DNA of 64,000 nt from Gluconobacter japonicus (GTDB taxonomy: Bacteria; Pseudomonadota; Alphaproteobacteria; Acetobacterales; Acetobacteraceae), in assembly GCF_002723975.1 (NCBI RefSeq), contig NZ_BEWO01000007.1, positions 62,001-126,000 of the forward strand, in the 5' to 3' direction. Each line of letters opens with the position of its first letter. Within the stretch, counting starts at the first letter, position 1. The position numbers and the translations under genes are program-made. Below, piece by piece: positions 50,413 to 60,162 of the stretch. The notes under the pieces were generated by a model that saw only the letters and a list, made by a program, of their open reading frames with translations, was not told the DNA's origin and made no database searches.

Positions 50413-50807
50413 CGCTTTATCCTCGCGTGTGCGGGGAACACCCAGCCAGGTGAAGCGTGTTCACGACAGTAGCCGGTTCATCCCCGCGTGTGCGGGGAAC
50501 ACCCCACTCAGAGAGAAACTTGTCCTTGATGCGGCGGTTCATCCCCGCATGTGCGGGGAACACGAGACCGCAGCCTGTTTGATATAGTTGGGTTCCGGTT
50601 CATCCCCGCATGTGCGGGGAACACCCCGAGTCTCATTATCAAGAGAAGTGAAACGCCGGTTCATCCCCGCATGTGCGGGGAACACAGTCAAACGTTACGC
50701 CTAAACTCGGCATTGTTCGGTTCATCCCCGCATGTGCGGGGAACACGTTTTCGGCCCAACAGGTAACGGTAAATCCGTCGGTTCATCCCCGCATGTGCGG
50801 GGAACAC
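50413..50807 (-). CRISPR. Type I-E CRISPR array, seven repeats, six spacers
   Basis: Seven 29-base repeats start at 50413, 50474, 50535, 50596, 50657, 50718 and 50779, exactly 61 bases apart, with six 32-base spacers. Read on the minus strand the repeat is GTGTTCCCCGC-ACAT-GCGGGGATGAACCG, with the CCCCGC/GCGGGG hairpin and AUGAACCG handle expected for Cas6e, close to the E. coli type I-E repeat. The last repeat (50413-50441) has four changes from consensus, and the two distal repeats read GCGTGT (plus strand) where the others read GCATGT. Degeneration at the cas-distal end and the AT-rich leader next to cas2 show that transcription and spacer addition run from right to left. Confidence 0.97.
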
Positions 50808-50878: not shown

Positions 50879-52154
<1,276 letters not shown>

Positions 52155-52160
52155 GATGTC

Positions 52161-52877
52161 TTACCAGGCCCGCCGGATGAGCATCAGGCCGCAGCCGAAG
52201 CTCTTGGCTCGTCCGAGGCCATTGCGCAGGCTGGTCAGAAAAAGCTCAGGGTCTGTGACGGTCAGGATGCCTTCGAACTCCATGACGCCAAAGGTTGCAG
52301 GTTTCTGCTGAAGCGTTCGGGGGATGACAACGGTATCGTAGCTGTCCACCCGTGGAGGGACGGGAAGCGAGAAGCCTCTCTCCTGCGCCTGGCGTGTGAG
52401 CCATGCTGCGCCAGCGTCCTGAACAAGGGCGAGGCGGGCTTCGGCGCGCAGGGTTGATTTGCCACTTTCTGATGGTTGTTTGCCAGGAATATGGTGCAGC
52501 GCATCCATGACAACATCATGTCGCTTGCCCCGCTTCTGACCGGGGAGAGCACGGCTGATGGTGGCGTTGGCACGGAGTCTGAACTCTAACTGATCGCCGG
52601 GGCGCAGATTGGGTTCAAACGGTCGGGGTTCGTCGATTTCGAACAGGCCGTGTGGGTCTGCGGGTGGACGTTCGGACAGGATATAGAAGTTGCCCGGCTC
52701 CTCCTGTCTCCACAAAAAATCCCTGTTTCGCTCGGGGGTGTCTCCGAACAACGCCCAGATTAAGTGATGTCCGCTTTTGATCTGGGCGCTGGCGTCGTGT
52801 GGCAGGAGAAGGCTGGACAGGGCCGAAAGCGCCTGACTGTCCCGCCTCAGACGTGCCCGGGAGAGGTAGAGCGACAT
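52161..52877 (-). CDS. cas6e: Cas6e CRISPR RNA endoribonuclease
   Basis: A 238-residue Cas6e (Cse3/CasE), which cuts the repeat hairpin and stays bound to the crRNA 3' end as a Cascade subunit. MSLYLSRARL at the N-terminus, the AQIKSGHHLIWALFGD segment with the catalytic His near residue 35, and the C-terminal GLGRAKSFGCGLMLIRR (Gly-rich loop) are the family marks. The ATG overlaps the cas5e stop (TGATG). At about 40 residues longer than E. coli Cas6e, it still has all landmarks. It is the expected processor of the crRNA-like element between cas3 and cas8e. Confidence 0.95.
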   Translation of the reverse strand: MSLYLSRARLRRDSQALSALSSLLLPHDASAQIKSGHHLIWALFGDTPERNRDFLWRQEEPGNFYILSERPPADPHGLFEIDEPRPFEPNLRPGDQLEFRLRANATISRALPGQKRGKRHDVVMDALHHIPGKQPSESGKSTLRAEARLALVQDAGAAWLTRQAQERGFSLPVPPRVDSYDTVVIPRTLQQKPATFGVMEFEGILTVTDPELFLTSLRNGLGRAKSFGCGLMLIRRAW

Positions 52878-53737
52878 CACAGAACCGGTACCGTCATGAC
52901 GGCCTCCTCTCTCAGGTCAAACTGCCAGCGGGTTCGGGAGCGTGGCTGGTCTCTGCGGAAGACGGTCTGGACGGTGTCATCAGGCGCGCCATGGGTTTCG
53001 GCATCCTGTTGATCCATGACGATCATGTGCCGCATTGTGTGTTCGGGGTTCTGGTCCGGCGTGGTTGCAAGGCGATCCCACTCAGCCCAGTGCCTGCGGT
53101 TCGGAGCCGTTCGGGCCAGTGCATGACGCAGGGTTGTGCTTTCCTGAGGCGCTGTTGGGGAAGAAGATGAACGTCCGATCGACACTCTGCTTTCAGGGCC
53201 ATGCCGATAGCGGTCGCGCAGTGCGGAAACGGCAGTGTCATGGCTCTGGAGGTCAGGAGCCAGGGGCAGACCAAGCGGGCAGGATTTGCGCCCCAGATAT
53301 GGTGTGAAAGCCGGTTCATGCATGGCCTGTGCCAGAGTTTCCAAAGACCATGGGGGTGTTTCGCTGCGTTGCCACAGGGCGCCGAGATGCCAGCTTCCGG
53401 CCCTGTAGTCCCGTCGGGAGAGCGTTGTATTCAGGTCTGAGACCGCAAGTTCCTGAGCGCGGGTGTAAAAGCGCGTATTCCGCTGGGCGGATGGCATCTG
53501 GGCCGTGTGGAAGTCCGTCAGCAACTGGCCGGGAGCGTGGCAGAGAAGCGCCAGACCGTAATCGCGCGCCAGATCGTCCTGGCGGAGGTCTTCCCGCGTC
53601 AGGCCCAGGCAGGCGGCGACCAGTCCCAGAACAGCCGAGCGAGCCGGGCGATCAAACCCGTCCCGCCGTTCCCCGACTGCCACGCCGCCAAAGGCTGAGA
53701 GCGGCGCAACGAGGGCGAAGGTCAGATAGCGTGGCAT
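52877..53737 (-). CDS. cas5e: Cas5e Cascade subunit
   Basis: A 286-residue Cas5e (CasD), which binds the 5' handle of the crRNA. LTFALVAPLSAFGGVAVGERR and RPARSAVLGLVAACLGL are the family N-terminal motifs, TRFYTRAQELAVSDL and RRDYRAGSWHLGALW follow. It is somewhat longer than E. coli CasD (224) because of an Arg/Ser-rich C-terminal part. It starts five bases after cas7e and overlaps cas6e. Confidence 0.94.
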   Translation of the reverse strand: MPRYLTFALVAPLSAFGGVAVGERRDGFDRPARSAVLGLVAACLGLTREDLRQDDLARDYGLALLCHAPGQLLTDFHTAQMPSAQRNTRFYTRAQELAVSDLNTTLSRRDYRAGSWHLGALWQRSETPPWSLETLAQAMHEPAFTPYLGRKSCPLGLPLAPDLQSHDTAVSALRDRYRHGPESRVSIGRSSSSPTAPQESTTLRHALARTAPNRRHWAEWDRLATTPDQNPEHTMRHMIVMDQQDAETHGAPDDTVQTVFRRDQPRSRTRWQFDLREEAVMTVPVL

Positions 53738-53742
53738 GAAAG

Positions 53743-54792
53743 TCAGGCCTTCTGCGCGAAGGTGACGATCTCTTCCAGTGTTCCATCGCCGCCCAGTACC
53801 AGCTCAGCCTGTGCGTCAGAACCGGGGCCGTAAGCCTTGTTGAGTTGATCCCGGAAAGTTTTGAGTTGGGCGATGGAAGCGCCCACGATGTCTGTGCCGG
53901 TGACTGGCTGGGCGAAGGCCCCAGCCAGTGTGCGCGGCTGCTGGTTGCCTTTTTCAGCCAGAATGTAATGGGCGCGGGCATGGGCGGCGAAGCTGTTCTG
54001 TTTGCCGCTGGGGGCGACGGTTGCGGCTGCTCGTGTCAGAGCGCCGAGCGTGGCGGCGGCGAGTGTGCCATCGTCTTCTTCGCCAAGATTGGTCTTCAGA
54101 AGATCCCTGTTGATGCACAGATACAGGTAGAACACACCTGACCCGAACCCGGCTTCACCCAGAAAGCCTGCGCCTGCATCTTCGGAGGACGTCTTCAGAT
54201 CATCAACGGCGGTATAGTAGTCGTCTTCAATGGAGACTTTGTGCGTTGTGATGGCGTGAGCCACCTGCGCTGCGGCTTCGCGATTGAAGGAAGGATTGTC
54301 TGCCAGCATACGCCCGAAGAGGGCGATGTCTGCGGCGGTATCAGCCCGCAGGAGCACGGAGGCTGCTTCTTTCTTTGGGTCGATCTTTTCACCACCCGCC
54401 ATGCGATCTGCCAGTTCCAGAGCGGCTGCCTTCTCACGAGGGGAAATGAAGGCAAGCTGTTCGATCGCGGTTGAAGTTTCTTCCTTTTTGAGTTTGCCGA
54501 AGATACTTGCGACTTCACGGGCAATCTTGGTGGCTTTTTTAGTGTCCTGACCTGCTGCAATCAGATGATCCAGAATGTCCTGTCCCATGCGCTGGGTGCG
54601 CTTGCCAAGATGGTGTTCAAGCGTTGCTTCAAAGGCTTCAGAAGTCCGCCATGCACGCTTGAGGGCTTGTGAAGACAGTCGAAGCCTGTTGGCTCCCCCG
54701 ACCATGGCCGTCTTGGGGCGGCCCAGATCATCCCGGTTCAGGTTGGACGGGGGGAAGAACGTCAGAAGGTGAAGCTGAAGAAAACGGCTCAT
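53743..54792 (-). CDS. cas7e: Cas7e Cascade backbone subunit
   Basis: A 349-residue Cas7e (CasC/Cse4), six copies of which form the crRNA-binding backbone of Cascade. The start MSRFLQLHLLTFFPPSNLNRDD, then GRPKTAMVGGANRLRLSSQALKRAWR (shown in part), and the C-terminal YGPGSDAQAELVLGGDGTLE are characteristic. Length is close to E. coli CasC (363). It lies 11 bases after cse2 in the operon. Confidence 0.96.
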   Translation of the reverse strand: MSRFLQLHLLTFFPPSNLNRDDLGRPKTAMVGGANRLRLSSQALKRAWRTSEAFEATLEHHLGKRTQRMGQDILDHLIAAGQDTKKATKIAREVASIFGKLKKEETSTAIEQLAFISPREKAAALELADRMAGGEKIDPKKEAASVLLRADTAADIALFGRMLADNPSFNREAAAQVAHAITTHKVSIEDDYYTAVDDLKTSSEDAGAGFLGEAGFGSGVFYLYLCINRDLLKTNLGEEDDGTLAAATLGALTRAAATVAPSGKQNSFAAHARAHYILAEKGNQQPRTLAGAFAQPVTGTDIVGASIAQLKTFRDQLNKAYGPGSDAQAELVLGGDGTLEEIVTFAQKA

Positions 54793-54803
54793 GGGAAATG
54801 TCC

Positions 54804-55412
54804 TTATCGGGCGTCGGCGGGAAGGGCGGAGAGGGGATTCTGAGAGCCAATGCCCCAGTAGTCATGCACCCAGCGGGTGCGGATACGGTCTGCGGCGGCA
54901 TCTTCTGCCGGCCAGCGAAGAAGGGAGTGTGCCAGATCGCGGATGTTGAGCGGTGCGTTGGCCAGGCGCACAAGGCGGCGGAAAGCTGTCAGACACTCTT
55001 CTGGATCGCGGGTTTCCAGCAGCTTTTCCAATCGATTGGGTTTGAATCTTGCGGAGGTTGCCACTTCATTCGGGGAGCCGCCGAAGTCTGTTGGTCCGAC
55101 TTCCCGGGCAACGGCATTTCGAAAAGCCTTTTGGCCGTCCGGTGCTTTTGGCGTGGGTGTTTCTGTCCGAACATGCGCGAGCACGCCCATCGTGAGAGCC
55201 AGCGCGGGCAACTCCTCGGGGGACGGAGCGGTTGGGAACTGACGCACCAGAGAGGCGAACGCGGGTTCCATCATGATATCCCAGACAGAGCCGCATCGCC
55301 GCAGGCGCGCGCTAACGGCGCGCCGACCACCCGTTTGAAGATCAGGATTGGTCGGATACAGGTCTCGCCACCATGTCACGAAGGTTTCGGTTGTTTCCTT
55401 ATCAAGACGCAT
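54804..55412 (-). CDS. cse2: Cse2 (CasB) small Cascade subunit
   Basis: A 202-residue Cse2, the all-helical small subunit present twice in Cascade that stabilises the displaced strand. ETFVTWWRDLYPTNPDLQTGGRRAVSARLRR (in part) at the N-terminus, and LARLRRLV-like helix FRRLVRLANAPLNIRDLAHSL near residue 145, fit the family. Its start overlaps the end of cas8e by 11 bases. Confidence 0.93.
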   Translation of the reverse strand: MRLDKETTETFVTWWRDLYPTNPDLQTGGRRAVSARLRRCGSVWDIMMEPAFASLVRQFPTAPSPEELPALALTMGVLAHVRTETPTPKAPDGQKAFRNAVAREVGPTDFGGSPNEVATSARFKPNRLEKLLETRDPEECLTAFRRLVRLANAPLNIRDLAHSLLRWPAEDAAADRIRTRWVHDYWGIGSQNPLSALPADAR

Positions 55413-57030
55413 GGTTTGTCCCGTTCTTTTTGGGGGCTTTGGGCGGAAGCGGCTGCTTCAGGAACTCGAAAAGCTGCTTCCCGTCTTTGGAGTGTCCGTA
55501 CAGGGTGCTGATGAGCCAGCGACGGCCGTTCCCAATCTGAATACATTCCTGAATGTCCGTATCCGGCGTAGCGGGAGCGTATTCGTCAAACAGATCCAGC
55601 GCGACACGACGGAGATCTGCCAACCAGTCATGGCAGGTCTGGTCCTGTGCCGCTGTCGGGTTCTGGCTGTATTGGGTCAGATGCTCGAAAAATGCTGGTT
55701 CCGTGCGGTTCCAGAACTCTTCGCGCAGGCAGGTGAAAAGAGACGCATCCAATTTGACCGTCGCTCCTGCCGAGAACAGAGCAGCGCGTACGGTTGAGCG
55801 AAGGGTATCGGCCACGAGGGTGGAGGCCTGAACAAGCCTGCGTGCCATGTCGTCAACGAGGAGTTGGTCTTCAGGCGTGGCGGCCCGGGGGAGAGGAAAA
55901 TGGCTTTCGGCAAAGCTGCGGAGCTTCATGTTGTCGAAATCTGCGCCGCCCGCGAAAAAGCGATCCATCGGGCGGGGAGTGTCGCCATCGTCCAGATCTG
56001 GCTGGCGGTCATTGATCCAGGTGCGGATGGCTGGCGCTTCAAAAGATGTTTCTGTCGGGACCACTAATCCAAGCCAGTGCCGGTACCGAATGCCGCCCGG
56101 TTGCGGATGCTGGAACAGGAGTTCCTTGTCCTTCCCCGGACGGTAGGTTGGCGTCAGGGGGTGACGGGGCGCCCAGTAGTTGTAGTTGGCGCCATAAGGG
56201 CGCTGACACCACCCTGTTGCCTGAACGTCGTCCGGCTCATCCGTGATGTCACACCGGGCATTGGGTTGCTCTTCAAAATTGAACCGGATCCGACGTGGCA
56301 TTCCCCACCAGGCCTGTAAGGGGTGCGCATTCAGGTCTGGAAGGATTTCAAGGTTTTTCTCTGAGGTCAGCGTTGGGACCAGCCAAGGGAAAACTTTGGG
56401 CAGATCTGCTTCGCTGGGTGGAGTGCCCAGTGGCACGTTGGCCCAGCACCGATGCCAAAGCGCGTCATGGTCGGATGGGGTTACGAATGTGATAAGGGGG
56501 CCTCCTCCGCGAAGGCCGGTCCGGTTTCCTTTGCCGCCTGAGGGGGCCCAGGACTGCATGGTGTAGAGCGCTATGGCTGCTGCTGGACGCCCCATGCGCT
56601 GCACGCGGTTTCTATGGTTGAGAAGATCCATGTTCTTCTTGATCGTCTGCTCGCCGGGGGCTTCGAACAGAAGGCGCTCAATGGGTTCGCTACCATTTGA
56701 GAGGGGCTCGAAATCCTGGAGGAAACGGGGGCCAGAACCATCCAGATTGAAGGCTTTCCGCATAGGCTCAAATGCGGCTTCCAAGTCCTCCGGTGTGGGA
56801 GGGGTGCGCCAGAGAGTACGCCATTTCCGTTCAGTGGCGGGCGGGAAAGCCGTTGCCAATAGCCCGATCAGGAATTCGATACTGGCAATCTGGAAGTCAA
56901 CGCGGGGCCAATCGAAGTCAACAACTGGATCGGTCTCAATATTTTCGACAATCTGGGAAGGACGGATAATCTCCGTCTTTTCGGATCTTCGTCGGATTGG
57001 AATCCAGGATGTTTTTATCAAATCAAACAT
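55402..57030 (-). CDS. cas8e: Cas8e (Cse1/CasA) large Cascade subunit
   Basis: A 542-residue Cse1, which reads the PAM and recruits Cas3. FDLIKTSWIPIRRRSEKTEIIRPSQI (in part) at the N-terminus, FQIASIEFLIGLLATAF, and the C-terminal four-helix bundle (LARRLVQASTLVADTLRSTV in part) are family features. The ATG follows the stop of the small membrane-peptide gene directly (TAAATG), so it is translated by coupling or read-through of ribosomes. The sequence GGKGNRTGLRGGGPL resembles the L1-type loop region of E. coli Cse1. Confidence 0.95.
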   Translation of the reverse strand: MFDLIKTSWIPIRRRSEKTEIIRPSQIVENIETDPVVDFDWPRVDFQIASIEFLIGLLATAFPPATERKWRTLWRTPPTPEDLEAAFEPMRKAFNLDGSGPRFLQDFEPLSNGSEPIERLLFEAPGEQTIKKNMDLLNHRNRVQRMGRPAAAIALYTMQSWAPSGGKGNRTGLRGGGPLITFVTPSDHDALWHRCWANVPLGTPPSEADLPKVFPWLVPTLTSEKNLEILPDLNAHPLQAWWGMPRRIRFNFEEQPNARCDITDEPDDVQATGWCQRPYGANYNYWAPRHPLTPTYRPGKDKELLFQHPQPGGIRYRHWLGLVVPTETSFEAPAIRTWINDRQPDLDDGDTPRPMDRFFAGGADFDNMKLRSFAESHFPLPRAATPEDQLLVDDMARRLVQASTLVADTLRSTVRAALFSAGATVKLDASLFTCLREEFWNRTEPAFFEHLTQYSQNPTAAQDQTCHDWLADLRRVALDLFDEYAPATPDTDIQECIQIGNGRRWLISTLYGHSKDGKQLFEFLKQPLPPKAPKKNGTNHAS

Positions 57031-57276
57031 TTATGAAATTCCGTGAGTATGAAAAATTACGGAGATATTCGCGCTTATTTTGATAGTAGAAACATATGCT
57101 TCCAAAGCATGGAAGGTCAGAAAGAGAATACTGATTGGGATTAGGATATAAAGCAAATGGAAGAGAGAATATTTTTGCGAAACAGGGGGTAAAGGCGTTA
57201 AGCTGGATAGCGGCTTCCTTCCTGATCTTTCCTCTTGAAGGATGTGATGGAAGGTCGTTTCAGATGCGGGGTGCAT
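57031..57276 (-). CDS. Small membrane peptide at the head of the Cascade operon
   Basis: An 81-residue frame starting at the ATG at 57276, which has AAGGAG six bases before it. The stop TAA is followed at once by the cas8e ATG. Residues 1-40 are soluble and polar; about 43-63 form one strong membrane helix (FHLLYILIPISILFLTFHAL); the tail has Ser/Ile/Lys residues. The coding region is visibly AT-rich compared with the cas genes around it. I know no cas family with this form. Position, ribosome-binding site and the stop-start junction argue that it is translated. Possible roles include a membrane sensor, an ancillary Cas protein or a toxin guarded by Cascade; none is demonstrated. Confidence 0.6.
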   Translation of the reverse strand: MHPASETTFHHILQEERSGRKPLSSLTPLPPVSQKYSLFHLLYILIPISILFLTFHALEAYVSTIKISANISVIFHTHGIS

Positions 57277-57385
57277 AAAATCTCCTTGTGTTTGCGGGGG
57301 TGGTTCAGCGTAGAGGCTGAAATCAAAGCTGAGCCACCTCATTTCCGAAAGGTGACAGAACAAACCCTAGAAAGCAATATTGATA

Positions 57386-57408
57386 ATCCATGGTAGAAAA
57401 TAGAACTT
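57386..57408 (-). promoter_or_regulatory. Predicted Cascade target site (PAM plus seed) before Cascade operon
   Basis: Read on the minus strand, AAG (57408-57406) is followed by TTCTATTT-T-CTACC-A-TGGAT (57405-57386). The same 20 positions begin the spacer-like sequence at 57472-57453, with mismatches only at positions 9 and 15. AAG is the canonical type I-E PAM, and positions 1-8 (the seed) match fully. Beyond position 20 the match disappears. Such partial matches allow binding but not cleavage by Cascade-Cas3. The site lies about 110 bases before the small ORF, in the region where the cas8e operon promoter must be. Confidence 0.6.
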
Positions 57409-57434
57409 AAAAAATATCCCCGCTTTCGCGGGGA
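57409..57434 (-). terminator. Terminator formed by degenerate repeat downstream of cas3
   Basis: On the minus strand CCCCGC-GAAA-GCGGGG (57433-57418) forms a six to seven base-pair stem with a GNRA tetraloop and is followed by ATATTTTTT (57417-57409). This is a good intrinsic terminator for the cas3 transcript and would set the 3' end of the crRNA-like RNA. Confidence 0.7.
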
Positions 57435-57501
57435 ACGCGGGTTAAAGCACCTATCCAAGGTAGGAAATAGAACGGTTCATCCCCGCTTATGCGGGGAACA
57501 T
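57410..57501 (-). ncRNA. crRNA-like element between cas3 and cas8e (CreR-type candidate)
   Basis: Two degenerate copies of the array repeat flank one 34-base spacer-like stretch (57439-57472). Repeat B (57473-57501) matches the array repeat except for the loop (ATAA) and first base; its CCCCGC/GCGGGG stem and ATGAACCG handle are intact, so Cas6e should cut it. Repeat A (57410-57438) keeps the stem but has a GAAA loop and a T-run in place of the handle. The spacer-like part begins with a full seed match to the adjacent DNA with an AAG PAM. Layout and partial complementarity are those of CreA/CreR RNAs, which guide Cascade to repress a nearby promoter. It would be made from the 3' end of the cas3 message. 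Confidence 0.6.
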
Positions 57502-60162
57502 TAACCCAGTGGCTTTATGATACTGGAGTCTCAAAGCATTGTCATCTTTGTCGCAGGCGGTCCCTTCAAATCCACCTTCCTCCGCCGCAAACAGAACAAG
57601 GACCAGAATGTCGTTCACGGCCTCCCGCTCCCAGCGGGGCCAGCAGGCACGGGCGGTTTCAATGGCGGTTTGTAGGCCTTCCGGGGGAGAGCAGGATGTC
57701 AGGCGTCTGCGGGCCACGCGGATTTCAGAGAGTGCCCATGCCCGTGCGGGATCGTCGTCGTCTGCGTAAGGGCGAATGATGCCGTTTTTGAGAAGCGCAA
57801 GGCGGACCACAACTGTTGGATCGGTTTCCAGTCGTGTGCGGGCCTGCAGGTCGGTATCCCATTGGCCTGTTCCGGGATCATAGGGCTCGCCCGTTTTCAG
57901 AACCGTCTGTCGTCCCAACCCCTGGGCGCCGATATTTTTGCCCTGCGTGGTGAGCATTTCTTTTTCAAGCGCAGCGGGAACGCTGTCAGGGGATGTTGAG
58001 TCTGCAACCTCTTCAATGATCGGACGAACGTCTTCGGGGGTTCGGAGAATATTGCGTGAAAATAGCGCGCGAGCCGTGCGCCAGAGCAGGGCAGGATCTC
58101 GATAAACGGCCGCTGTTCCGGGCAGGACACGGCGGATCCAGTTTGCATCCGGATCCGAAACAGGGGGCGGGGAAATAATATCCAGTTGCGGGGAACTGAG
58201 GGGGCGATTGCTGCGATGATGACGCCAGAGGCGCCCCGCTCTCTGGATCAGGAGATCAGCGGGGGCAAGGTCCGTAATGAGGGCATCAAAATCCACGTCC
58301 AGAGACTGTTCCAGGATTTGCGAAGAAACGAGAACGCCAGTCCTTTCTTCGGGGGACGACTGTTTGCCAAACTTCCGAAGAATGTCCTGCTCGATTGCAA
58401 GTCGGTCCACCATGGCGAAACGGGCGTGGAACAGTTGAACTTTCACGCCTCTGGCACGAAGGGCTTCGGCACTTGCGATGGCGTCATCAACGGTATTGCG
58501 GATCCATGCAATGGCAGCGCCGGTGCTAGCGAGGTTCATAATACGGGCTTCAGCTTCGTCCGGGTCTGAAAGCCGGTTGATTGTAACGGTTCTGCCCAGC
58601 CCGGGACGTGGTTCACAGGGCGTTTCCATAGGGGGAGCGGTTGTCGAGACCAGTGTGGTCAGAGGGTAATGCGTGTCCTGCAGAGTCGTTCCGGGCAGAC
58701 CCAGTCCTTTGCGGAATGCGTTCACCAGTGTGGTTCTGAGGGCATGGGACAGGGTTGCGGAGAGAAGGATGACTGAGCCGCCACGAGAGGCGTGAAGAGT
58801 CAGAAGTTCCTTCATTTCCTCAGTCATGTATGGGTCAAAGCTGTGAATTTCGTCACAGCACAGGATCTTGTTGCTTAGTCCCTGCCGTCGGACGGTCGTG
58901 TAACGGACGGGCAGGACGGCCATGAGAGCCTGGTCGATGGTGCCGATACCGACCTGCGCCAGCAGCGCGCGCCGGTTCTCCGAGGCCAGCCATTCGGAAC
59001 AGGCGGCCTCGCCGGGTTGCTTCTGATGCTCTGGCGTTGAAAAAGACGGTTTTTCCGAAAGGATTGTTTGCGTGAACCGCTCTGAAAGGCGGGCTTTTCC
59101 GTGTGCGAGCGCAAGGGATGGCCGATCCAGGGGATGAAACATTTTCCCGTATGCCGCAGCGACACGATCAAACATTGCATTGGCTGTTGCCATGGTTGGA
59201 AGAGCCAGAAAAAGTCCGCTGGCGTGGCCGCGTGCAATCAGCCGATGGGACAGAATCAGGGCCGCTTCCGTTTTGCCGCTCCCGGTCATGTCTTCAATGA
59301 CGATGAGCGTTGGTCCATCAGGAAGTGGGACGGTTTCAGCCCAGTGCTGCAATGGGGAGAGGGCGTGCTTTTCGAGGTGGGGCAGAAGAGTCTTTGCTGT
59401 CTGGAAAGGCGTGGTGCGAACAGACCCAAGTCCTGCCTGTAGAACGGCCTTCTGGGCCTGGGGCAGGGCTTTGTTCCAGAAATAGGCGGAGGGGTCTTTC
59501 AGGTCCTGGGGGTTGATATAGGGAAACCATGTATGGTTTGAACCAATCCAGTCTGCTATCGGGAGATATTCCGCGAGGCGCCAGGCGAGACTGTCCATGG
59601 CTGCTTCCGTGATGTCTTCCGGGAAGGGGGGCGGCTGGAAAAGAGAGGCCATGACGGTCAGGAAGGATTGGGCTGCTTCCAGAGTTTTTTCTCCAAGAGA
59701 CATCAGGTTTGCAGGACGTTGGTAGGCTCGGCTGACCGGTTTGCCATGATGACCGGCAACCCCTGTGAAAATCCGGAGTTTTTCCGTTACTGACCAGTCC
59801 GGGAAAAGGGTTCGCAACACGGGGTGAGTACTGAGTTGTCCCAGAAGCTGTAAGCCCGCAGCATCGTGTCGTGGACCTGGAGGGAGGGCGGCGGGAGTAT
59901 GGCCAAGAGCTGCAGGCCAGAGGTCCGGGCGGAGGAACTGGAAGGTTGCTCCCAGTTTGCCGATGTCATGCAGGCTGGCGAGAAAGCCTAGAAGCCGCCG
60001 ATCCAGAGGTTGATGATTGATAAGAGGGAGCATGCTTTCCGGCAGGCTAATCGCAACGGCTGCCACATCCAGGCAATGTGCGAGGACAGGATGCATGGGG
60101 TGGAGAGCCCCGGTTTGCATGTCTGTTTTGGCCCAGAACTGAGCCAGATCCGTCATATCCAT
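57487..60162 (-). CDS. cas3: Cas3 helicase-nuclease (type I-E)
   Basis: An 891-residue Cas3 that nicks, unwinds and degrades DNA bound by Cascade. The HD nuclease has His21/His24-type residues in GALHPMHPVLAHCLDV and LASLHDIGKLGATFQ (His65-Asp66). The SF2 helicase has Walker A EDMTGSGKTEAALIL (about 290-300), the DEIH box in CCDEIHSFDP, LLSATLSHAL and QRAGRLWRHHR. Length matches E. coli Cas3 (888). The last four codons (MFPA) and the TAA stop are supplied by a CRISPR repeat copy; the stop lies in the hairpin loop. The gene is separated from the Cascade operon by about 210 bases that hold the crRNA-like element. Confidence 0.96.
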   Translation of the reverse strand: MDMTDLAQFWAKTDMQTGALHPMHPVLAHCLDVAAVAISLPESMLPLINHQPLDRRLLGFLASLHDIGKLGATFQFLRPDLWPAALGHTPAALPPGPRHDAAGLQLLGQLSTHPVLRTLFPDWSVTEKLRIFTGVAGHHGKPVSRAYQRPANLMSLGEKTLEAAQSFLTVMASLFQPPPFPEDITEAAMDSLAWRLAEYLPIADWIGSNHTWFPYINPQDLKDPSAYFWNKALPQAQKAVLQAGLGSVRTTPFQTAKTLLPHLEKHALSPLQHWAETVPLPDGPTLIVIEDMTGSGKTEAALILSHRLIARGHASGLFLALPTMATANAMFDRVAAAYGKMFHPLDRPSLALAHGKARLSERFTQTILSEKPSFSTPEHQKQPGEAACSEWLASENRRALLAQVGIGTIDQALMAVLPVRYTTVRRQGLSNKILCCDEIHSFDPYMTEEMKELLTLHASRGGSVILLSATLSHALRTTLVNAFRKGLGLPGTTLQDTHYPLTTLVSTTAPPMETPCEPRPGLGRTVTINRLSDPDEAEARIMNLASTGAAIAWIRNTVDDAIASAEALRARGVKVQLFHARFAMVDRLAIEQDILRKFGKQSSPEERTGVLVSSQILEQSLDVDFDALITDLAPADLLIQRAGRLWRHHRSNRPLSSPQLDIISPPPVSDPDANWIRRVLPGTAAVYRDPALLWRTARALFSRNILRTPEDVRPIIEEVADSTSPDSVPAALEKEMLTTQGKNIGAQGLGRQTVLKTGEPYDPGTGQWDTDLQARTRLETDPTVVVRLALLKNGIIRPYADDDDPARAWALSEIRVARRRLTSCSPPEGLQTAIETARACWPRWEREAVNDILVLVLFAAEEGGFEGTACDKDDNALRLQYHKATGLMFPA

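What the first reader, a model, noticed from the sequence alone, without database searches (positions are those of the whole stretch)
57381..57501. Hidden crRNA-like regulator (CreR/CreA-type) built from the end of cas3 and aimed at the Cascade operon
Seen directly: two degenerate type I-E repeats flank a 34-base spacer-like sequence between cas3 and the Cascade operon. The predicted guide (minus strand from 57472) starts TTCTATTTCCTACCTTGGAT. The DNA just past the second repeat (57405 down to 57386) matches 18 of these 20 positions, with positions 1-8 perfect, and is preceded by AAG, the canonical type I-E PAM. Matching stops after position 20. Known: CreA/CreR RNAs are crRNA-like RNAs with partial complementarity that make Cascade bind and repress a promoter (of a toxin, or of cas genes) without cleavage. 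Inference: Cas6e frees this guide from the cas3 transcript, and Cascade then blocks its own operon, giving feedback on Cascade level and on crRNA loading. The match and PAM would be hard to explain as a dead array remnant.
Basis: partly seen in the sequence, partly recalled or inferred. Interest (0 to 1): 0.93.

Follow-up and report, generated by a model that had tools for sequence, protein, structure and literature searches.

The report
Self-targeting CRISPR guide beside cas genes
Overlapping the end of the cas3 gene, this bacterium carries a small built-in CRISPR guide whose partly matching target lies just upstream of the CRISPR effector genes, and comparison with related bacteria shows guide and target changing together, so it very probably acts as a switch rather than being a dead leftover.

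Summary
Confirmed: two degenerate type I-E repeats (57501-57473, 57438-57410, minus strand) flank a 34-nt spacer, and an AAG-preceded site at 57405-57386 matches 18 of its first 20 bases. Chance and dead remnant are disfavoured. Of 25 loci with such a repeat at the cas3 end, 20 hold a PAM-plus-seed target before cas8e, against 7 of 574 cross-pairings. In 18 non-duplicate systems mismatches fall at positions 6 (14), 12 (15) and 18 (13) but never 7: the every-sixth-base rule of Cascade. Between the window and Gluconobacter thailandicus, guide and target changed together at five positions. What the guide controls is less certain. Several relatives have, between target and cas8e, a stem-loop, Shine-Dalgarno and mini-ORF with rare codons at 7-8, like a CreT toxin; others have the target near cas8e and no mini-ORF. 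The window keeps stem-loop and Shine-Dalgarno, but its 81-codon ORF lacks that codon pair and shows no protein selection (dN/dS 0.96). Best reading: a CreA/CreR-type guide, probably a CreTA module that lost its toxin and now represses the Cascade-operon leader. CreR in type I-E is already reported.

The parts
57473..57501 (-). First degenerate repeat (psiR1): hairpin plus 8-nt 5' handle ATGAACCG; overlaps the end of cas3 (stop TAA 57489-57487 lies in the hairpin loop)
57439..57472 (-). Guide (psiS), 34 nt
57410..57438 (-). Second degenerate repeat (psiR2): 3' hairpin running into a T-run, also terminator-like
57406..57408 (-). PAM AAG of the target
57386..57405 (-). Target, 18 of 20 matches to the guide (mismatches 9 and 15)
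57299..57338 (-). 5' stem-loop of the leader (moderate support: 6 of 200 shuffles fold as well), at the place where relatives have a stem-loop before their mini-ORF
57282..57287 (-). Shine-Dalgarno AAGGAG in the position of the relatives' mini-ORF
57031..57276 (-). 81-codon ORF directly before the cas8e ATG; no rare codon pair at codons 7-8; dN/dS 0.96 against L034; function undetermined
57517..57545 (-). Sigma-70-like candidate promoter inside cas3 (ATGACA, 17 nt, TATCAT), 10 of 12, also in L034; not discriminating, loci without the element score 5 to 10
57487..60162 (-). cas3
55402..57030 (-). cas8e (cse1/casA), first gene of the Cascade operon
50879..55412 (-). cse2, cas7e, cas5e, cas6e, cas1e, cas2e
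50413..50807 (-). CRISPR array of the system, 7 repeats with spacing 61

Best explanation
The 57501-57410 element is a CreA/CreR-type guide. Its RNA is cut by Cas6e (inferred) and loaded into Cascade. Cascade binds AAG + 57405-57386 through 18 matching bases (15 if bases 6, 12 and 18 are flipped out), probably too few for Cas3 cleavage, and blocks the promoter region just downstream, which leads through a 5' stem-loop leader into the cas8e operon. In several relatives the same arrangement sits over a CreT-like mini-ORF; in Gluconobacter that place holds an ORF without the rare codon pair. The most likely output here is therefore feedback repression of the leader and Cascade operon (CreR-like), derived from a CreTA module. 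Shown by sequence comparison: guide, target, PAM, co-evolution, six-base periodicity in the family. Inferred: processing, binding, repression, promoter, CreTA ancestry.
For: 25 of 73 loci with a located cas3 stop have a handle-like 8-mer behind a stem at the cas3 end (23 if the duplicates L011 and L077 are left out); 20 of the 25 have PAM + identical bases 1-5 downstream, against 7 of 574 cross-pairs with different seeds. The target was chosen on positions 1-5 only; mismatches then fall at position 6 14/18, 12 15/18, 18 13/18, against 7 0/18, 8 3, 9 3, 10 2, 11 3 (29/36 vs 27/162, Fisher p 3.6e-13; one locus per seed cluster, 14 loci, 23/28 vs 20/126, p 3.0e-11). Every sixth base is not paired in Cascade (passages of PMC13122317 and PMC5904413). 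Within the genus, guide and target changed to the same new base at positions 8, 10, 13, 16 and 17. AAG + 5 seed bases suffice for E. coli Cascade binding, maximal affinity needs no more than an 18-bp match, robust interference needs at least 18-25 bp (PMC5904413 passages). TTGA motifs are enriched at offsets 19-39 from the target start, 10 in 378 positions vs 5 in 1905 further on (the offset range was chosen after seeing the data). All five Cascade genes and cas3 are present. Relatives with the target close to cas8e and no mini-ORF exist: L014 75 nt, L025 119 and L068 96 nt (mini-ORF absence by eye).
Against: No RNA or binding data. No convincing sigma-70 promoter after the target in the window or in L034 (7 of 12, reached by 88% and 98% of shuffles); only 4 of 18 systems (L006, L043, L055, L087) have one that at most 4% of shuffles reach. 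The target lies 376 nt before cas8e, so cas8e could have its own promoter. The window pair is atypical: it matches at 6, 12 and 18 and mismatches at 9 and 15. In L023 the repeat stays but no target is recognisable; L007 and L071 have a non-canonical PAM. An 18-of-20 match is at the lower edge of what supports interference in E. coli. Only two Gluconobacter loci were available, and 24 of 26 genomes of the genus gave no cas8e match at all.
Confidence: 0.7

Rival explanations
1. CreTA (or CrePA): the target promoter drives a toxic RNA or small toxin in the leader (57345-57031), and Cascade keeps it silent, making the CRISPR system addictive.
For: Several relatives carry target, stem-loop, Shine-Dalgarno and mini-ORF in the same place. 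In 9 mini-ORFs of at least 8 codons, codons 7 and 8 have mean usage percentiles 0.01 and 0.02 and both rank as rarest in 5 of 9 (permutation 0 of 200000). Tandem AGA/AGG/ATA occurs in L006, L008, L017, L031, L065, L087 and in L023. The window keeps stem-loop, AAGGAG and ATG 129 nt after the target. The 81-codon ORF has no indel against L034 and contains a hydrophobic stretch.
Against: The window ORF has ACG ACC at codons 7-8, neither rare (18 and 27 per thousand). The ORF shows no protein selection (dN/dS 0.96); one Pfam match far below its cut-off. In L034 the Shine-Dalgarno is weaker (AAAGAG; no SD-linked start listed). Systems with the target but no SD-linked start listed: L014, L028, L034, L055 of 18; L059 and L080 have very short ORFs without rare codons.
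Confidence: 0.2
2. Dead array remnant or chance duplication: the target was copied by local duplication and nothing is regulated.
For: In this genome guide and target are 18/20 alike at 67 nt spacing and match even at 6, 12 and 18, as a recent copy would.
Against: The PAM sits exactly before the target, the same arrangement recurs in 20 of 25 loci with many different guides, mismatches follow the Cascade period, five paired changes within the genus.
Confidence: 0.05
3. The repeated 20-mer is a pair of binding sites for a transcription factor.
For: Two similar sites upstream of an operon.
Against: The sequence differs between lineages while each pair stays matched; AAG or ATG precedes the target, the repeat handle precedes the guide; mismatches are six-periodic.
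Confidence: 0.02
4. The RNA acts by antisense pairing with the cas8e leader.
For: Small RNA next to a leader.
Against: Guide and downstream transcript are alike in sense, not complementary, so they cannot pair there.
Confidence: 0.01

Closest known systems
CreR (cas-regulating RNA), reported for types I-B, I-E and V-A
   Same: crRNA-like guide with partial complementarity to a site upstream of its own cas operon; Cascade as predicted repressor (mLife 2026 review PMC13131331, one passage; Toxins 2025 review PMC12737573, passages; PMC12948488, one passage).
   Different: The window has a 376-nt stretch with CreT-like anatomy between target and cas8e. The primary CreR paper did not appear in the searches, so details and species could not be compared.
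CreTA / CreA of Acinetobacter type I-F (PMC10097628, passages)
   Same: Located in the cas3-csy1 intergenic region; two degenerate repeats; 17 of 20 bases pair, except the 6th, 11th and 18th; mini-ORF with Shine-Dalgarno downstream of the target.
   Different: Type I-E here; psiR1 overlaps the cas3 end; the mini-ORF in relatives lies in the direction of the guide (there divergent); the window itself has no recognisable CreT.
CreTA of Haloarcula hispanica and Halobacterium hubeiense (PMC8501985, passages and one section)
   Same: Most creA genes have two diverged repeats; CreT with mini-ORF, tandem rare codons (AGA AGA or AUA AUA) and a stem-loop; strong Shine-Dalgarno in H. hispanica.
   Different: There the ORFs have four or six codons and, in H. 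hispanica, the AGA codons follow the start directly; in the type I-E relatives found here the rare pair mostly sits at codons 7-8 (L087: 4-5).

Membership tests
CreR / CreA guide (crRNA-like regulatory RNA) | One or two degenerate CRISPR repeats outside the array flanking a spacer-like sequence | tested here: met
CreR / CreA guide (crRNA-like regulatory RNA) | Partial complementarity next to a PAM, kept in relatives | tested here: met
   (20 of 25 loci)
CreR / CreA guide (crRNA-like regulatory RNA) | Processed RNA with 8-nt handle made by Cas6 | not testable with these tools
   needs small-RNA sequencing
CreR | Target in the promoter region of the cas operon, which it represses | tested here: inconclusive
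   Target lies upstream of cas8e; a TTGA motif is enriched at a fixed distance in the 18 systems but no promoter is recognisable in the window
CreTA | CreT minigene: strong Shine-Dalgarno, start, tandem rare codons, stem-loop | tested here: not met
   Window keeps stem-loop, Shine-Dalgarno and ATG but has no rare codon pair at 7-8; met in several relatives
CrePA | Protein toxin repressed by a CreA-guided effector | tested here: inconclusive
   81-codon ORF open without indels in both Gluconobacter loci but dN/dS 0.96; no Pfam match above cut-off
Canonical type I-E array | Near-identical repeats, 32-nt spacers, foreign targets | tested here: not met
   Diverged repeats, 34-nt spacer, self target with PAM

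The most novel reading that the evidence does not exclude
Alphaproteobacterial type I-E systems (a good part of the Acetobacteraceae ones, also Haematobacter in Rhodobacterales and one further family) share an inherited Cascade-controlled module at the cas3 end. Its toxin is a mini-ORF that traps ribosomes or rare tRNAs at codons 7-8. Lineages pass from toxin-antitoxin (CreTA) through a toxin-free feedback regulator (CreR) to loss; the window is caught after toxin loss, with the guide-target pair renewed in step.
Probability: 0.45. Interest if true: 0.78.

Novelty: new member of a known kind. Interest (0 to 1): 0.62.

Why it matters
It gives sequence-level evidence, over many lineages, that Cascade is used as a gene regulator in type I-E systems: natural guide-target pairs drift at the bases Cascade does not read. 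It also suggests a testable path between toxin control and cas feedback within one bacterial family, and a simple way to find hidden modules of this kind (scan the cas3-cas8e gap for a repeat handle, then for PAM plus seed).

Tried and rejected
Protein reading of the leader ORF: dN/dS 0.96 against L034, only a Pfam match far below cut-off, no plasmid match; within the genus 3 of 26 genomes match, the window's own, G022, and G014 with a weak match holding four stops. Not adopted, not excluded.

Promoter inside cas3 for the guide: 10 of 12 in the window and L034, but the 20 loci with the element score 6 to 10 and loci without it 5 to 10. Not used as evidence.

Generic promoter score after the targets: mean 7.7 against 7.1 in shuffles, weak; only the TTGA position is clearly enriched, in a range chosen after seeing the data.

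Second genomic site: judged chance. Rfam: no match. Plasmid searches: cas3 or cas8e pieces only, at 65-84% identity in the rows shown; no match to the element itself.

Wider phylum: of 27 loci L093-L119 only L107 passed the PAM + seed rule, with 13 mismatches in 20 and no period, so chance. L082, from another family, looks like a further case by eye (AAG, mismatches 5, 6, 18; sequence) but was not counted. L038 (ATG, mismatches 3, 12, 16) and L068 (AAG, mismatches 6, 12, 14) came only from the relaxed search and are in no statistic.

Rows dropped: one search left out L001, L002, L004, L005, L024, L029, L083 (repeats of other loci, fragments or lacking upstream sequence) and five loci without a usable cas8e start; 80 remained, some from the same genome. 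18 systems remain from 20 hits after removing L011 (near-copy of L010) and L077 (same as L014). For L087, which has two hits, the first by position was used. The codon statistic uses 9 of the 18 systems, those with a Shine-Dalgarno-linked start and at least 8 codons; codon usage came from the cas3 and cas8e stretches of each locus, not from whole genomes. I picked those starts by hand after seeing the sequences, which favours the result. Left out: L003, L013 (stop at codon 2), L014, L028, L034, L055, L059, L080, L087.

Full report
The element. The window is part of a 3.16-Mb genome (G000). G022, a genome of the same genus, has a contig of the same length (64,695) as Gluconobacter thailandicus F149-1 NZ_BANH01000013.1 and the same 91% cas8e match, so the window is very probably Gluconobacter. 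The type I-E genes lie on the minus strand: cas3 60162-57487, cas8e 57030-55402, then cse2, cas7e, cas5e, cas6e, cas1e, cas2e, and an array of seven repeats at 50413-50807. Between cas3 and cas8e lie psiR1 (57501-57473), a 34-nt guide, psiR2 (57438-57410), AAG and the target 57405-57386. The cas3 stop TAA lies in the psiR1 loop. The two-hairpin RNA folds better than 200 of 200 shuffles (z -3.67). psiR2 runs into a T-run and is one of 3 terminator-like sites in 600 bases, where shuffles give 0.7.

Chance. The best match of the 20-nt guide in 2000 shuffles of the downstream region was 16; observed 18. In the genome only guide and target match the first 14 bases with at most one mismatch.

Relatives. 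With the window's cas8e as query, 60 of 397 genomes of the family and 62 of 395 of the order (overlapping sets) have a match; with family TIGR02547, 12 of 385 of the class (8 over the cut-off) and 33 of 398 of the phylum (24 over the cut-off). From the loci fetched up to, 80 could be analysed, 73 of them with a located cas3 stop; a few come from the same genome and two are enterobacterial. 25 of 73 have a handle-like 8-mer behind a stem at the cas3 end; their cas3-cas8e gap has median 366 nt, against 97.5 nt in the other 48. In 13 of the 25 the cas3 stop is the TGA of the handle itself.

Guide and target. With the rule PAM (AAG, ATG, AGG or GAG) plus identical bases 1-5, 20 of the 25 have a target downstream; cross-pairing guides with other such loci of a different seed gives 7 of 574. 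A looser first control, with shared seeds and doubtful handles included, gave 198 of 4108. Of the five without a strict hit, L025 and L079 have AAG with one mismatch in bases 1-5, L007 and L071 have weak pairing with AAT, and L023 has none. The guides differ between lineages, with two shared seeds (TTCTA in L003 and L034; TCTTG in L027, L028, L031, L065), yet each fits its own site. Named members are Gluconobacter thailandicus F149-1 (L034), Roseomonas marmotae plasmid p1318-5 (L077) and Haematobacter massiliensis plasmid pOT1-4 (L080), the last in Rhodobacterales. Acetobacter pasteurianus pAPA01-011 (L076) and Roseomonas mucosa p1-AD3 (L078) have short gaps of 61 and 88 nt and no such element.

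The six-base signature. Because targets were chosen on bases 1-5 only, positions from 6 on were not selected for. Over 18 non-duplicate systems the mismatches are: position 6 14, 7 0, 8 3, 9 3, 10 2, 11 3, 12 15, 13 2, 14 3, 15 5, 16 6, 17 7, 18 13. Positions 6 and 12 against 7-11 and 13-16: 29/36 vs 27/162, Fisher p 3.6e-13; about 20,000 within-row permutations gave none as extreme. With one locus per seed cluster, 14 loci: 23/28 vs 20/126, p 3.0e-11. The seven chance cross-hits, a small sample, have mismatches 6, 3, 6, 7, 5, 7, 1 of 7 at positions 6-12, no such pattern. Cascade does not pair every sixth base (passages in PMC13122317, and PMC5904413; the latter adds that position 6 can still contribute for some guides). 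This argues for selection on Cascade binding to DNA rather than for a protein-binding site or antisense RNA. The window itself does not show the signature: it matches at 6, 12 and 18 and differs at 9 and 15. Between the window and L034, however, guide and target both changed to the same new base at 8, 10, 13, 16 and 17; at 11, 19 and 20 both changed but to different bases; at 6, 12, 15 and 18 only the target changed. A recent renewal of one copy from the other would explain the window's pattern; that is inference.

Why no cleavage. Passages of PMC5904413 state for E. coli that AAG plus 5 seed bases suffice for binding, that maximal affinity needs no more than an 18-bp match, and that robust interference and priming need at least 18 to 25 bp. 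The window's match ends at position 20 with two mismatches, so binding with little or no cleavage is expected; this is close to the border and untested.

What is controlled. In many of the 18 systems the region after the target shows, in order, a TTGA motif at offsets 19-39 (9 of 18 systems; 10 in 378 positions against 5 in 1905 further on), a GC-rich stem-loop (by eye), a Shine-Dalgarno, and a start codon 96-165 nt after the target (14 of 18 systems including the window; none listed for L014, L028, L034, L055). Several then have a short ORF followed by another stem-loop. In 9 mini-ORFs of at least 8 codons, codons 7 and 8 have mean usage percentiles of 0.01 and 0.02; both rank as rarest in 5 of 9, and ranks are 1 and 4, 1 and 2, 1 and 2, 3 and 3 in the rest; permutation 0 of 200000 (starts picked by hand). 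Tandem AGA, AGG or ATA codons occur in L006, L008, L017, L031 and L065 at codons 7-8, in L087 at 4-5, and in L023 at 7-8 of a 54-codon ORF in a locus without recognisable target. L059 and L080 have ORFs of 3 and 5 codons, stop included, without rare codons. The arrangement resembles CreT: PMC8501985 (passages and one section) names for H. hispanica a strong Shine-Dalgarno, an efficient start, two consecutive AGA codons and a stable stem-loop. Other relatives have the target near cas8e and no such ORF: L014/L077 at 75 nt, L068 at 96 nt and L025 at 119 nt (absence judged by eye in the sequences). Four loci of genus g31 show three states: L031 with mini-ORF, L068 without, L066 and L067 with no element; four other g31 loci (L070-L073) have a more distant cas8e and were not resolved, except that L071 has the repeat with an AAT-preceded weak match.

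The window's leader. It keeps a stem-loop (57338-57299; 6 of 200 shuffles fold as well), AAGGAG and an ATG 129 nt after the target, but the ORF runs 81 codons to the cas8e start, codons 7-8 are not rare, and dN/dS against L034 is 0.96 with no indel in 246 nt. No convincing sigma-70 promoter is seen after the target in the window or in L034. I therefore read the window as a CreR-like regulator probably derived from CreTA, with CreTA or a protein toxin as live alternatives.

Literature. CreR in types I-B, I-E and V-A is stated in a passage of PMC13131331; CreR is described in passages of PMC12737573 and PMC12948488. The primary CreR paper and the first CreTA paper did not appear in the listings; I know them only by recall and through these reviews. 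In the main texts of PMC8501985, PMC9458426 and PMC10097628 the words Acetobacter and Gluconobacter do not occur, and a search for CreTA with CRISPR and Acetobacter listed four papers, judged off-topic from titles and abstract openings. This does not show that these loci are unpublished, because primary papers and supplements were not readable.

Verdict. Guide, target, PAM and co-evolution: well supported. Cascade-mediated repression: very likely by inference. Feedback on the Cascade operon: most likely output, about 0.7 for the whole statement. The kind is known; the family-wide pattern and the rare-codon mini-ORFs in relatives are the more novel part.

Noticed in passing
L006, L008, L017, L031, L065, L023: CreT-like ORFs with tandem rare codons (AGA AGA or ATA ATA) at codons 7-8, between the guide's target region and cas8e (L023: 54-codon ORF, no recognisable target).
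   Followed up: partly
L013, about 127 nt after the target: Mini-ORF resembling that of L017 but with a stop at codon 2 and ATA AGA at the place of codons 7-8; perhaps a disabled toxin, perhaps read from an inner start.
   Followed up: no
window 57105-57031: The last 75 nt before cas8e have about 5 differences to L034 (counted by eye) against 45 in the 246-nt ORF as a whole; a cas8e promoter or translation control element may lie there.
   Followed up: partly
L082 (G659), about 238 nt before cas8e: Likely further guide and target in another alphaproteobacterial family: AAG, mismatches 5, 6, 18, found by eye (sequence).
   Followed up: no
L120:1262-1278 (G000:C1:92061-92077): AAG-preceded partial match to the window's guide (positions 1-8 and 11-15) at the overlap of two convergent ORFs; probably chance.
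   Followed up: yes
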